From Paralvinella palmiformis (Eukaryota; Annelida; Polychaeta; Terebellida; Alvinellidae): 64,000 nt of DNA. Below, in pieces: positions 17,901 through 42,200 of this stretch (position 1 is its first letter; each line of letters begins with the position of its first letter). The position numbers and the translations under genes were made by a program. The stretch spans positions 25,001 through 89,000 of the forward strand of contig JAODUP010000349.1 of NCBI GenBank assembly GCA_025642065.1, read 5' to 3'. The notes under the pieces are model-generated. The model saw only the letters and a list, made by a program, of their open reading frames with translations, had not been told where the DNA came from and did not search any database.

Positions 17901-20900
17901 GGCTGCGCCACTCTCCAGAAATGTTTGGATAAGAAAGGGTTGGATTGTTGCTAAACCATTATGAATAATAGTATTGGGTTATGCTGTATAAATAACAATA
18001 CGCTTATATTTGGGCTTCGTCCAGTGATCCCGCTGGAATATCAACATAAAATACAAAATAAACAGCTTCCAGACAGGACGCCAACATAACACTTCTATTC
18101 ATCTGAAGTATAGTGCCAAGCCAAAATAACCCCAATATTGCCATTTGAATAATCTGTGCCAGTCAGCACTCAAGAATGGAACCAAAGAACAACATGGTCA
18201 TGAAGGGGAAAGTTTTACTTGAATGTTTTATTATTTTACGGCCACTTTTTGTGTGCATGTTGTTGTGCTAAATAGACCGAGAGATTTCCAACGCTACTGA
18301 TGCCAATTGAAAGGTGAAACATCCTTCAGGCATGCCAATGCCGAGGTTTGAACTCAGGTGGTTGAGATCTATAATAAACTGGAGGAATATTGTTACTATT
18401 TATTAGCAACAGCAAATGTCAACAGCTACATCAGTAGCAGCATCATCTATCCATAAATAAACAAGAATGTGTCCAAAAAAGTCCTTTCCTTGCCAATAAC
18501 AAAAACATTAGCCAAAATAGTGTATGTTATCCCGAGGTACTGGTGGGGACGTAATTTAAAACAAGTAATAAATTATTAAAAGTTAAATAAAGTGATAAAT
18601 AACATCAAAGAGACGGCATGTTTAGCAATATTAATATACCTTACACTAATTGAATTTATTATTATTATTATTATTATTATTATTATTATTATTATTACAG
18701 AAGTCCAAGCAAGAAGAGGTAGAGGACAATGAAGTGTCAGGAGATGATAGAGGGAAGTGGGCCAATCCTATGGAATTTATCTTATCTTGTCTTGGTTATG
18801 CCGTCGGTCTTGGTAATGTGTGGAGATTTCCGTATCTTTGTTATACAAATGGCGGAGGTTAGTACCGACAGGTGGCAGCATTAGCTAAATGTCATATACA
18901 TTTATACCATTTCAATCAGATTTATTTATTAATTTATTGTCATCAAAAGTATCTATATACCTTTTTATACTATATCTAGGAGCATTCCTCATTCCCTATG
19001 CCATCATGTTGACATTTGTCGGCTTGCCAGTGTTCTTTATAGAGCTAAGTGTAGGTCAATATTGTGGAGGTGGACCTCTAACTGTATTTGATGCTTCACC
19101 GTTATTTAGAGGTAATTTGGGCGATAATGTGAGCCAGTTACTGTAAGATCTTTATGAGGTACATTGGCTTATGCATATAGCTTTATTATATTATATGAAT
19201 TTACAGTGTGATGCTTAAAATTGACACACACACATACACACACACACACACACACACACATACCATCTCTCTCTCTCTCTCTCTTTCTCTCTCTCTCTCT
19301 AAGATGCTTCTATATGTACCTCGCTGGTATTTTAAAACATTATCATGATAAAGACATATTTTATTTCATCTTCTAGGAGTTGGACTTGGGATGGTGATTA
19401 TCTCTTTTGTTGGATCAATTTATTACAATATGATTATCGGATGGTCACTTTATTACATGTTTGTTTCGTGGGCCAAGGTTCTTCCGTGGGCTAGCTGTGA
19501 CCACGAATATAACACAGAAAGTATGTATACATGTTTGTATATATGTGTGTATATGTATATGTGTATATTTTAGTAGTATGAAAAAAGTAACGGTACAGAG
19601 AATTAATAAATGTGAATAAGCATCTGGATGATTTAGTAGTCAACTGAATCTTGAACAGCGACTCTTCATACTGAGATGTATAATATCTCACCAATCCTCG
19701 TATACGTATGTGTGGGATTATTATTATTGTTGTTGATATTATTAATTGTATTACTTATATATAAATAAGACTCAAGAAACTGGATTCTTCTTAACCACAG
19801 AATGCTACTCTAGAAAAGAAGAGATCCAATATTGTACAGGTGATGATTCAACAGCTGTTTGGTATAACAACATTTGTTATAACAGCACATATCTCTCTCA
19901 GTGGGACGTCACATATCCGTGTAACGGGTCGGACCCAAACAGTGAAACGTGCCTATCTAACACCGTGAAAGAGGGTCTTAAGAATCTTACAGCGAAGAGA
20001 GTTGGAGCCAGTGAGGAGTATTTTAAGTAAGTTGAACGCACTGTAAATCTGTCTCTAAGGGGCAATAATTTACTCTTGCAGTTTAGACATTGTTGGCAAC
20101 AATGATCATATTGTAATGGTGTGCTACGTGTCGTAGTGTTTATGACAACCTACAAATGCATCGTTCATTCTTAATGCTTATGTTGGTGTCAAATTTATGC
20201 TGGAATGGCGGATCGTGGATAATGTGATCGATAGAAACAATCTATTCCCCTGGATTATTAAATCCGTCTACCGTCGAATAGATTCTGGCATGTTTACTCT
20301 ATTTAGATATGTCATCGGGTAATCGTTATGGCATCGTTTATAGCTTCGGCATGCTGGACCGGCTGGAGACGATGGATGAGGCAGGCGAGATGAAGTGGCA
20401 GTTGGTGCTCATCCTTCTCTTGGCCTGGGTCCTTTGTTACGTCTGTATAATCAAGGGCATCAAATCTTCGGGCAAGGTGAGCAGTCCGGCAATCGATTGA
20501 ACATCGGAACAATAAAGCTATCTAATAACTTAGAGTGTGATGTCTCATTCGGAATGTGTTTATCTCGTAGATTGTTTACTTCACGGCCACCTTTCCTTAT
20601 GTGGTCATCATTATCCTCATCGTTAGAGGAGCGCTGCTAGAGGGCTCTCTGGAAGGCATCAAGTTCTATATAATCCCGAAATGGGAACAGCTCACGAAGC
20701 CGAAGGTATTCGACCCAGTTGGATTGTTACCCTAATAATAATAATAATAATAATAATAAGTTTGTTTCTCTGTGAGTTTATAAACATTTTGAACTCTCTC
20801 TATTTCTAGGTTTGGGTTGATGCAGCTGGACAGATCTTTTTCTCACTCAGTGTAGGTATGGGCGGCTTGATGACGTTCGCTAGCTATAATAAGTTCCACA

Positions 20901-39200: not shown

Positions 39201-42200
39201 TGCTTATTCACATTTATTAATTCTCTGTACCGTTACTTTTTTCATACTGCTAAAATATACACATATACATATACACACATATATACAAACATGTATACAT
39301 ACTTTCTGTGTTATATTCGTGGTCACAGCTAGCCCACGGAAGAACCTTGGCCCACGAAGCAAACATGTAATAAAGTGACCATCCGATAATCATATTGTAA
39401 TAAATTGATCCAACAAAAGAGATAATCACCATCCCAAGTCCAACTCCTAGAAGATGAAATAAAATATGTCTTTATCATGATAATGTTTTAAAATACCAGC
39501 GAGGTACATATAGAAGCATCTTAGAGAGAGAGAGAGAAAGAGAGAGAGAGAGAGATGTGTGTGTGTGTGTGTGTGTGTGTGTGTGTGTGTGTGTGTGTGT
39601 GTGTGTGTGTGTCAATTTTAAGCATCACACTGTAAATTCATATAATATAATAAAGCTATATGCATAAGCCAATGTACTCATAAAGATCATACAGTAACTG
39701 GCTCACATTATCGCCCAAATTACCTCTAAATAACGGCGAAGCATCAAATACAGTTAGAGGTCCACCTCCACAATATTGACCTACACTTAGCTCTATAAAG
39801 AACACTGGCAAGCCGACAAATGTCAACATGATGGCATAGGGAATGAGGAATGCTCCTAGATATAGTATAAAAGGTATATAGATACTTTTGATGACAATAA
39901 ATTAATAAATAAATCTGATTAAAATGGTATAAATGTATATGACATTTAGCTAATGCTGCCACCTGTCGGTACTAACCTCCGCCATTTGTATAACAAAGAT
40001 ACGGAAATCTCCACACATTACCAAGACCGACGGCATAACCAAGACAAGATAAGATAAATTCCATAGGATTGGCCCACTTCCCTCTATCATCTCCTGACAC
40101 TTCATTGTCCTCTACCTCTTCTTGCTTGGACTTCTGTAATAATAATAATAATAATAATAATAATAATAATAATAATAATATGTTTATATTCACATTATAG
40201 TAATCTTCTTATAAATAATCTATGGCTAAATAAAAAAACTTAAGCTATGACAATTAATATTAAAATAGTATTCATGCTTTAATAACTTTATTTGATCATC
40301 ATAAGGTTCACCATTATAGCAGCGTATTGATGTTCAACCGATGACGAATAAATCAGATCCCGATTTGTTAAGAACTGGCAGTTAGAGCGAACGAGTTTGA
40401 GTCCAAATAAGCATCAACCACTTTAACATAATTACTCAGACATATATTTTGGCCATGAACTGAATGTTTACAGGATATGTTGTGGTTTGTGATGTGGAAC
40501 TCATCGAACAAGGTCATGGTGTGGAGGAGGTCAGGATTAGAATCCTGACTATGACGCTATAGTGTAGGTCATCCAGACAGGCAACTGCCAAGGATTCCTC
40601 CACCGAATTATATACTTAATTATAAATATATTATAGATTAGTCCCCATGGTGAGGCATTCGATTACAGTCTATCTACTACTCCCTTATCTAAAAAAATAT
40701 ATATTTCGTCTCGTTCATGGTGATAGCATATAGGATTTGTCGACATGCTTATTGTATGCTGCTCCATATGTTTTCTATAAGAAATGGGTTGTCTCTTTGT
40801 GATATACTTTGGTGGAGATACGGAATTAATGGCGTTGGAAAAGATTGCACAGGAAAAAAAATGAAAAAAACGGAAAAAATGGTACTATAAAATTTGGATA
40901 AAATGGCACCTGAAACAAAATGTTATAGCTTATTGACGTTTAATTATTGGTAGTAAGTGAAATCCTGCTTTAATTTTTTTTTTATAATTTCACATCTGAA
41001 GGAGTGGCTTCCCACATCCTTGGATTAACTTCCAGACATAATTCCCTTCGTGTCACGGCATCTTCTTTGAAACGCTGAGCAGTTCTATTGGAAGCAGGTG
41101 TATTTCTTATAAATATCAATGGGAATATCATTATCTTTCATTAGAAAGTCATAACTAGCAACAAAGTTAATGATGATCCAAAGTTAGTCACAGCTCATAA
41201 CGATGATTCATCTGATACAAAAGTATATAATAATGAACTTTGTTAAGCAAAACCAAGTGTACTTTAAGTTTTTTAAGCAACTATACAGAAAAAAATAAAT
41301 AGGGTGTCATTTTTTCCAAATTTGCATAGTGCCATTTATTCCGGGCGCCATTTTTTCCAGTGCTATTTTTCCAGTGCCATTATTTCCTACCCCCACTTTG
41401 GTTTGTGTGTGTCTGTGTCTGTGTGCATGTGTGTGTTTGCGTCACTGTCGATTAAGAGCACTGTTTCTCTGACTACATTTAACGTTTTAGGCAAACCCTC
41501 CGATTCTCGATGAGCCAGGAGACCCTCAGTTTATAGTGTCAATTGATGAACTTACTCGTTCAGCAAGAGTTTAGCCTGAAACAAGATTCGCATCTAACAT
41601 ATCGTCAACTACTCCACCACTCCAACCACACGCAGCCTTCATCTATCTAAAACATATGTTCCGAGGAATAACTCCTTATGGAAACATCCCACAAATACAG
41701 CTACGAATCGGATTCGAAACCTGACATATCGGAGTATCATAAATGATCCAGATGAAGTCATCGATAACATGAGAACAATCTGTTAACAAATGTCAAATGA
41801 CATTACGCGATATCGACTCCTTTCGCGCTGATTTGAGAACATTTTAGCGTCAAATATTTTATTTAAAAGATTAATATATCCATATTGTCCGAATGTTTAG
41901 ATCTATCAGATATTCTACCCACGGACTGACACAAAATAACTATCATCCAGAACAGATTGTTATGGAGAGCAAAACGGTACGCGGTGATGGTAGTCGTATT
42001 TTTATCCTAGAGAGTCACGTGGTATGTCGTGATTTCCATTATCTTACATACATACATACATACATACATCATGTATACACATACATACATACATACATAC
42101 ATACATACATATATACACACATACATACATACATACAATAAAACTTTAGATAACATATATAGCTCACAACAATACAAATACAATCACAATATTTAAATAA

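What the first reader, a model, noticed from the sequence alone, without database searches (positions are those of the whole stretch)
18655..40181. Mosaic identity between inverted SLC6 paralogues points to repeated gene conversion
Seen: exons 2-5 and introns 2-4 are nearly identical in A (about 18655-20013) and B (about 38829-40181), with one substitution and one indel in the 121-nt intron 2. Identity ends abruptly inside the last codons of exon 5. Exons 6, 7, 9 and 11 are clearly diverged. Yet exon 8 (104 of 104 apart from one insertion), exon 10 (113 of 113), most of exon 12, and exon 14 into the first about 138 nt of exon 15 are again nearly identical. Introns beside exon 10 are unrelated, so uniform recent duplication or selection on protein cannot explain silent-site identity. 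Alternating tracts are the signature of ectopic conversion.
Basis: partly seen in the sequence, partly recalled or inferred. Interest (0 to 1): 0.78.

Follow-up and report, generated by a model that had tools for sequence, protein, structure and literature searches.

The report
Patchwork gene conversion between twin transporters
Two neighbouring, mirror-image copies of an amino-acid transporter gene in a hydrothermal-vent worm have repeatedly overwritten short pieces of each other, so that some exons are almost identical while the exons and introns next to them have drifted far apart; this is a known process caught in an unusually clear form.

Summary
Observation confirmed. A (+) and B (-) are tail-to-tail SLC6 genes of Paralvinella palmiformis; exon 1 lies further out, at 11928 and 45485. 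Silent divergence is bimodal: 0-0.03 in exons 2-4, 8 and 10, but 0.65-1.26 in exons 6, 7, 9, 11 and 13. Four tract edges fall inside exons, two of them sharp. In 50 unlinked SLC6 pairs of this genome exons 8 and 10 are as silently diverged as the rest (0.61, 0.60), so codon-level constraint is excluded. Searches with exons 2-5, 8 and 14-15 found no third copy closer than 86% apart from microsatellite matches. Repeated ectopic gene conversion is the best explanation. It recurs in an inverted pair (E/F) and a direct tandem pair (K/L), marginally in G/H, not in the younger I/J. A has one extra T in exon 8, a frameshift. Exon-confined conversion beside unalignable introns is already described (Drosophila Amy, copepod GOT1), so this is a clear new member of a known kind. 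In A/B the converted exons carry the substrate-site helices; other pairs do not replicate this.

The parts
11928..11948 (+). Copy A exon 1 (start codon, first 7 codons); diverged from B exon 1
   Evidence: Pattern search plus 64-nt match at 86% to B exon 1 and its 5' flank
18701..26514 (+). Copy A (SLC6), exons 2-15: 18701-18857, 18980-19111, 19377-19520, 19777-20026, 20344-20476, 20571-20705, 20810-20914, 21173-21297, 23548-23660, 24584-24712, 24889-24988, 25134-25234, 25920-26108, 26263-26514
   Evidence: GT-AG model and translation
20909..20910 (+). TT in copy A where B has one T: frameshift in exon 8; reading stops in exon 10
   Evidence: Alignment, translation
29940..40133 (-). Copy B (SLC6), exons 2-15, open: 40133-39977, 39855-39724, 39446-39303, 39065-38816, 38656-38524, 38421-38287, 37868-37765, 37215-37091, 35425-35313, 34925-34797, 34563-34464, 30747-30647, 30533-30345, 30218-29940
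   Evidence: GT-AG model and translation
45465..45485 (-). Copy B exon 1
18656..20014 (+). Tract 1, copy A: exons 2-5 with introns 2-4; 8 substitutions in 1257 aligned bases outside a microsatellite
38828..40178 (-). Tract 1, copy B
20792..20909 (+). Tract 2, copy A: 118-nt identical run, 18 nt of intron 7 plus most of exon 8; introns beyond without clear homology
37769..37886 (-). Tract 2, copy B
23542..23669 (+). Tract 3, copy A: 128-nt identical run around exon 10; introns 9 and 10 without clear homology
35304..35431 (-). Tract 3, copy B
24884..24962 (+). Tract 4, copy A: 79-nt identical run with the first 74 nt of exon 12; edge inside the exon
34490..34568 (-). Tract 4, copy B
26004..26087 (+). 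Tract 5, copy A: 84-nt identical run inside exon 14 (its left edge is not sharp)
30366..30449 (-). Tract 5, copy B
26238..26400 (+). Tract 6, copy A: 163-nt identical run, end of intron 14 plus first 138 nt of exon 15; sharp edge inside the exon
30081..30243 (-). Tract 6, copy B
20344..20705 (+). Diverged block, copy A exons 6-7 (dS 0.78 and 0.96)
26515..29939 (.). About 3.4 kb spacer between the two 3' ends of the coding models

Best explanation
A and B are an old tail-to-tail duplicate pair of an SLC6 transporter (nearest solved relatives are glycine transporters) in Paralvinella palmiformis. After most introns had lost clear homology, several separate ectopic gene-conversion events copied sequence between them: one tract of about 1.35 kb with three introns, and four or five short ones (identical runs of 79-163 bp) on conserved exons, where similarity ends at or near the splice sites or inside the exon. 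Shown: bimodal silent divergence, breakpoints inside exons, no silent constraint on these exons in unlinked paralogues, mosaics in other neighbouring SLC6 pairs. Inferred: that the islands were converted DNA-to-DNA by local repair rather than through cDNA; and the dynamics, that an exon goes on being converted while its identity is high and escapes for good once it has diverged, which would give the all-or-none pattern. Direction of transfer is not determined.
For: dS 0, 0.03, 0 in exons 2-4 and 0, 0 in exons 8 and 10, against 0.65-1.26 in exons 6, 7, 9, 11, 13; same-aa degenerate codons differing 0/32 and 0/35 in exons 8 and 10 against 59/159, Fisher P 1.9e-6 and 6.4e-7; two-state model 2dlnL 99.9. 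Introns 2-4 near identical, introns 5-10, 12, 13 without clear homology. Edges inside exons: sharp at 20014/20015 and 26400/26401, less so at 24962/24963 and 26003/26004. Paralogue C: exon 8 protein 35/35 identical but 15/32 codons silently different; exon 10 19/34. 50 unlinked pairs of 11 genes: pooled silent difference 0.52-0.68 in each of exons 2-14. No third copy above 86% for exon 8, none beside A and B for exons 14-15, none above 79% for exons 2-5 over 100 bases or more (40 of 174 candidates scored). Mosaics also in E/F (heterogeneity P 6e-14) and K/L (P 3e-6; abrupt edge inside exon 4).
Against: GC3 is lower, not higher, in converted exons (0.41 against 0.55-0.56), so the GC rise reported with conversion elsewhere is absent; paralogue C shows 0.50 against 0.43. 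The islands are short for homologous repair with unrelated flanks. Intron 14, between tracts 5 and 6, is more diverged (11/124 plus indels) than the exon parts beside it. The single runs around exons 8 and 10 are not significant over the whole gene (P 0.27 and 0.15) and only moderately within exons 6-15 (0.013 and 0.005). The two-state model also calls short pieces of exons 9, 12 and 14 with posteriors near 0.5. I/J shows no heterogeneity (P 0.40) and G/H only marginal (P 0.02). No population or orthologue DNA was available.
Confidence: 0.92

Rival explanations
1. Assembly or polishing artefact: paralogous reads were cross-mapped or chimerically joined, so identical blocks were created by the consensus.
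For: Not excluded by any read data here. The islands are perfectly identical while tract 1 holds 8 substitutions in 1257, but the islands were delimited as perfect runs, so this is no test. The extra T in A exon 8 may be a base-call error.
Against: Tract 1 carries its own substitutions and indels. Some edges fall inside exons. Other contigs show mosaics in an inverted and a direct pair. Reads from diverged exons would not be expected to cross-map (inference).
Confidence: 0.04
2. cDNA- or RNA-templated conversion: reverse-transcribed mRNA of one copy recombined with the other, so exons but not introns were homogenised.
For: Exons 8, 10 and part of 12 are homogenised beside introns without clear homology. 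An intact intronless SLC6 gene exists in the genome (C2552:747628-749526), so retroposition has probably touched the family.
Against: Tract 1 includes three introns. Exons adjacent in mRNA (9, 11, 13) are untouched. The exon 8 run reaches 18 nt into intron 7, where the acceptors of diverged exons 6, 7, 9, 11 and 13 share 2-8 nt (read off).
Confidence: 0.06
3. Strong selection on silent sites (splicing enhancers, RNA structure or editing) keeps particular exons identical.
For: The identical exons 8 and 10 are also the most conserved at protein level (dN to C 0.00 and 0.04).
Against: Silent sites of the same exons are fully diverged in paralogue C (15/32, 19/34) and in 50 unlinked pairs (0.61, 0.60). 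Edges inside exons and near-identical introns 2-4 do not fit.
Confidence: 0.01
4. One recent duplication followed by patchy change, for example replacement of exons 6, 7, 9, 11 and 13 from a third paralogue.
For: Tract 1 alone would look like a recent duplication.
Against: Introns 5-13 are without clear homology or barely alignable while exon order is conserved; dN is well below dS in the diverged exons (0.03-0.12 against 0.65-1.26). A whole-genome search with exons 6-7 for such a donor was sent but not answered, so this part is untested.
Confidence: 0.02

Closest known systems
Drosophila palindromic amylase genes (Amy-p/Amy-d; Amy1/Amy2 of D. kikkawai)
   Different: In the passages seen the coding sequence is described as a whole; here conversion switches on and off exon by exon within a 15-exon gene whose introns are mostly unalignable
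Tigriopus californicus GOT1Sd/GOT1Sr
   Same: Inter-paralogue conversion largely restricted to exons, one intron largely unalignable, one copy losing its reading frame (passages of PMC3728101)
   Different: One diverged intron, and no alternation of converted and escaped exons in the passages seen for this pair
Human BMP8A/B, DDX19A/B, TUBG1/2
   Same: Old gene pairs, BMP8A/B inverted, with conversion covering a subset of exons and introns and divergence elsewhere (passages of PMC2720389)
   Different: Tracts there include introns and GC is mostly raised; here several short tracts are exon islands and GC3 is not raised
Primate red/green opsins and the model of selection against conversion
   Same: Peaks of divergence beside homogenised sequence (passages of PMC3924837)
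   Different: There exon 5 is the diverged peak amid homogenised introns; here introns are diverged and exons are the homogenised islands

Membership tests
Ectopic (interlocus) gene conversion | Silent and non-coding sites homogenised in bounded tracts within otherwise diverged paralogues | tested here: met
Ectopic (interlocus) gene conversion | Tract breakpoints not tied to exon boundaries | tested here: met
   Edges inside exons, sharp at 20014/20015 and 26400/26401, less so at 24962/24963 and 26003/26004; the other edges coincide with loss of similarity at introns
Ectopic (interlocus) gene conversion | Not explained by site constraint: the same exons diverged in paralogues that do not exchange | tested here: met
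   50 unlinked pairs; paralogue C
Ectopic (interlocus) gene conversion | Donor and recipient are each other and not a third locus | tested here: inconclusive
   No closer third locus for exons 2-5, 8 and 14-15, but the tool scores only its best candidates, the assembly may be incomplete, and searches with exon 10 and exons 6-7 did not complete
Ectopic (interlocus) gene conversion | Within-species paralogues closer than orthologues in converted parts only | tested here: inconclusive
   Protein level only. Exons 2-5: A and B differ at 2 of 228 codons in amino acid, against P0001 34 of 220 aligned residues differ from B. Exons 6, 7, 9, 11: A-B differ at 30 of 173, P0001-A at 32, P0001-B at 27. 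Exons 8 and 10: P0001 identical in 72 of 73, so uninformative. The species of P0001 is not named
Ectopic (interlocus) gene conversion | Shared polymorphism between copies | not testable with these tools
   No population reads
GC-biased gene conversion | Raised GC at third positions in converted parts | tested here: not met
   GC3 0.41 in exons 2-4, 8, 10 against 0.55-0.56 in exons 6, 7, 9, 11, 13
SLC6 (PF00209, sodium:neurotransmitter symporter) | Matches the Pfam SNF model above its cut-off | tested here: met
   Exon 2 stretches of A and B over the cut-off; closest homologue P0001 657 bits
SLC6 glycine/proline/B(0+) subgroup | Nearest characterised relatives are glycine or neutral amino-acid transporters | tested here: inconclusive
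   By sequence of P0001 the best solved chains include GlyT2; A and B themselves were not searched against solved structures; substrate not testable
cDNA-mediated conversion | Tracts lack intron sequence and follow mRNA adjacency | tested here: not met
   Tract 1 holds three introns; neighbours in mRNA alternate

The most novel reading that the evidence does not exclude
Conversion here works exon by exon as a bistable switch: conserved exons of about 100-160 bp remain exchangeable long after the introns around them have lost homology, and in A/B the exons still exchanging are those that carry the helices lining the substrate site and vestibule (TM1, 3, 6, 8, 10), while TM4, 5, 7, 9 and 11 have escaped. 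Selection would keep one shared substrate pocket in two transporters whose outer helices are free to diverge.
Probability: 0.15. Interest if true: 0.65.

Novelty: new member of a known kind. Interest (0 to 1): 0.42.

Why it matters
It is a clean natural case in which the shortest stretch of homology that still allows conversion can be read directly, because introns without clear homology bound the exons. The same genome holds five neighbouring SLC6 pairs that look to be at different stages, inverted and direct, which opens the escape from conversion to comparative test. It also warns that trees or dates built from whole SLC6 coding sequences of such pairs will mislead.

Tried and rejected
Synonymous constraint was tested with paralogue C and with 50 unlinked pairs and rejected. 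GC-biased conversion was tested and not met. cDNA-mediated conversion of the islands was considered and judged less likely. The idea that inverted orientation is needed was dropped because the direct tandem pair K/L shows a mosaic. The substrate-site idea was tested by permuting exon labels: A/B P 0.004, K/L 0.13, G/H 0.48, E/F 0.80, and jointly 1 of 56 labellings. The grouping was chosen after seeing A/B, which drives the joint result, so I do not claim it. A comparison of 0 differences in the islands with 8 in tract 1 was dropped, because the islands were delimited as perfect runs. The E/F rows include mis-joined matches for exons 9 and 12; one search replaces the E/F pair values, but searches were not rerun. 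The exon 5 and exon 14 borders were wrong and were corrected; one search failed through a script error. Scans for tRNA and Rfam families found none, and nine other open frames had no Pfam match. Exon labels for other paralogues are by homology to B. The five neighbouring pairs are those I picked from the list; other loci there, among them two on C777 about 166 kb apart, were not read. Of the 13 lowest unlinked-pair values, one per exon, 12 were 0.28 or more; one (exon 14, E-J, 2/14) was not followed up.
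Full report
What is there. The window lies in a 594 Mb genome assembly as contig C1859:25001-89000. The organism is Paralvinella palmiformis, an alvinellid vent annelid: an intronless SLC6 protein from contig C2552 of the same assembly is 100% identical to a protein of that species, from a contig of the same length, 962,724 bases (taxonomy). Two SLC6 genes face each other tail to tail: A on +, exons 2-15 at 18701-26514, and B on -, 40133-29940, with conserved exon order, GT-AG borders and a spacer of about 3.4 kb between the coding models. 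B is open from exon 2 to its stop. A is open except for one extra T near the end of exon 8, which shifts the frame and leads to a stop in exon 10.

The mosaic. Silent divergence by exon is: exon 2 0; 3 0.03; 4 0; 5 0.13, with four silent changes in the last 12 nt of the exon; 6 0.78; 7 0.96; 8 0; 9 0.65; 10 0; 11 1.26; 12 0.11; 13 0.89; 14 0.23; 15 0.41. In exons 6, 7, 9, 11 and 13 together 59 of 159 same-amino-acid degenerate codons differ; in exon 8 0 of 32 and in exon 10 0 of 35. A two-state model beats one rate by 2dlnL 99.9, and none of 20,000 shuffles had as few switches. The four longest silent runs are significant over the whole gene (P 5e-5, 0.0019, 0.012, 0.042; exons 2-5 and 14-15), while those around exons 10 and 8 are not (0.15, 0.27); within exons 6-15 alone they reach 0.005 and 0.013. 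Introns 2-4 are near identical, intron 14 is alignable with 11 mismatches in 124, intron 11 shows modest similarity (z 5.7 and 7.0), and the others show none that is clear in their first or last 200 nt (z at most 4.4). Perfect runs are 118 nt at exon 8, 128 at exon 10, 79 at exon 12, 84 in exon 14 and 163 at exon 15.

Why conversion. Protein-level selection cannot hold silent sites, and the silent sites are free. Paralogue C (C1712) has the same exon 8 protein, 35 of 35, yet 15 of 32 codons differ silently; exon 10 gives 19 of 34. Among the 11 SLC6 genes in hand, the 50 unlinked pairs, pooled, differ at 0.52-0.68 of same-amino-acid codons in each of exons 2-14, exon 8 at 0.61 and exon 10 at 0.60 (exon 5 and exon 13 rest on few codons). 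Searches of the assembly with exon 8 return only A, B and C at 86%; with exons 14-15 only A and B; with exons 2-5 A and B, then partial matches of 70-83% and microsatellite matches (40 of 174 candidates scored). Tract edges fall inside exons, sharply at 20014/20015 and 26400/26401 and less so at 24962/24963 and 26003/26004. In protein, A and B differ at 30 of 173 residues in exons 6, 7, 9 and 11, about as much as either does from P0001, the closest homologue found (32 and 27), but at 2 of 228 codons in exons 2-5.

It recurs. Five neighbouring SLC6 pairs, picked from the list, were read. E/F (C1387, tail to tail): exons 2-3 and 6-14 close (0-3 silent differences each), exon 4 close except for a patch with an edge inside the exon (7 of 40), exon 5 diverged (16 of 48 silent, 9 of 58 residues); heterogeneity P 6e-14. 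K/L (C621, direct tandem): exons 2 and 4 low (5/35, 5/39), exon 10 intermediate (11/32), six others 0.41-0.63, an abrupt edge inside exon 4; P 3e-6. G/H (C2130, tail to tail): mostly saturated, exon 12 at 91% over 115 nt, with flanks that look unrelated; P 0.02. I/J (C1749, direct): no heterogeneity, P 0.40, largely alignable introns, apparently a younger pair. So the process is not special to A/B or to inversion, and it is not seen in every pair.

How it most likely works. Shown: bounded exchanges between neighbours, one with introns and several on exons. Inferred: purifying selection keeps conserved exons similar enough for strand invasion, repair copies the paralogue until similarity ends at the intron, and each exchange restores identity; an exon that misses this for long enough drifts below the threshold and escapes. 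That predicts the all-or-none distribution. A cDNA template is less likely because tract 1 holds introns, exons adjacent in mRNA alternate, and the exon 8 run reaches 18 nt into intron 7. Against a simple picture: GC3 is not raised in converted exons (0.41 against 0.55-0.56), the islands are short, and intron 14 is more diverged than the exon parts beside it. Polishing of the assembly could have erased a few residual differences; nothing here tests that.

A functional hint. The homogenised exons 2, 4, 8, 10 and 12 carry TM1, 3, 6, 8 and 10, and the escaped exons 6, 7, 9, 11 and 13 carry TM4, 5, 7, 9 and 11 (helix numbering from recalled SLC6 topology). In the human dopamine transporter the central-site ligand is described as facing TM1 and TM6, and TM3, TM6 and TM8 (passages of PMC11324517); TM10 as part of the vestibule is recalled. 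A/B fits (P 0.004, post hoc), K/L leans the same way (P 0.13), G/H and E/F do not (0.48, 0.80). I keep it as a hypothesis.

Compared with what is known. Coding-confined concerted evolution in palindromic Amy genes of Drosophila (passages of PMC3924832), exon-restricted conversion with a largely unalignable intron and a decaying copy in copepod GOT1 (passages of PMC3728101), conversion of exon subsets in human gene pairs including an inverted one (passages of PMC2720389) and theory of divergence peaks under conversion (passages of PMC3924837) cover the kind. None of the papers listed by searches appears, from titles and starts of abstracts, to report conversion in annelid SLC6 genes; only the listed rows were seen, and the library lacks most subscription journals. 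In the main text of the Alvinella pompejana genome paper the terms 'SLC6' and 'gene conversion' do not occur (PMC12403961).

Noticed in passing
G000:C2552:747628-749526 (L031): An intact intronless SLC6 gene, 42% identical to B and P0001, unlike the multi-exon SLC6 genes read here: probably an old retrogene that stayed intact.
   Followed up: partly
G000:C1859:16371-16514 and 19525-19662 (L010): A partial SLC6 copy upstream of the window: only exons 2 and 3 were found (65-70% protein identity), a possible relic or truncated neighbour.
   Followed up: partly
window 5625-7364 and 7346-9071: A direct tandem duplication at 95% identity with shorter internal repeats of about 500-550 bases; no Pfam match in the two open frames tried.
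   Followed up: no
window 9724-9907, 13884-14071, 25621-25803, 30825-31012, 37959-38145, 50785-50969 and others: A dispersed element of about 185 bases at roughly 84-94% identity, in both orientations, one copy in intron 7 of B; looks like a SINE.
   Followed up: no
window 23740-24427: A 688-base trinucleotide (TGA) array in intron 10 of copy A; no such array is listed in the same intron of B.
   Followed up: no
window 20906-20914 (A) and 37765-37772 (B): The only break found in copy A's reading frame lies at the end of an exon otherwise identical to B, so the break would postdate the exchange, or it is a base-call error.
   Followed up: partly
E and J exon 14 (C1387, C1749): One unlinked pair has an unusually low silent difference in exon 14 (2 of 14), possibly an exchange between unlinked loci or a mapping artefact.
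   Followed up: no
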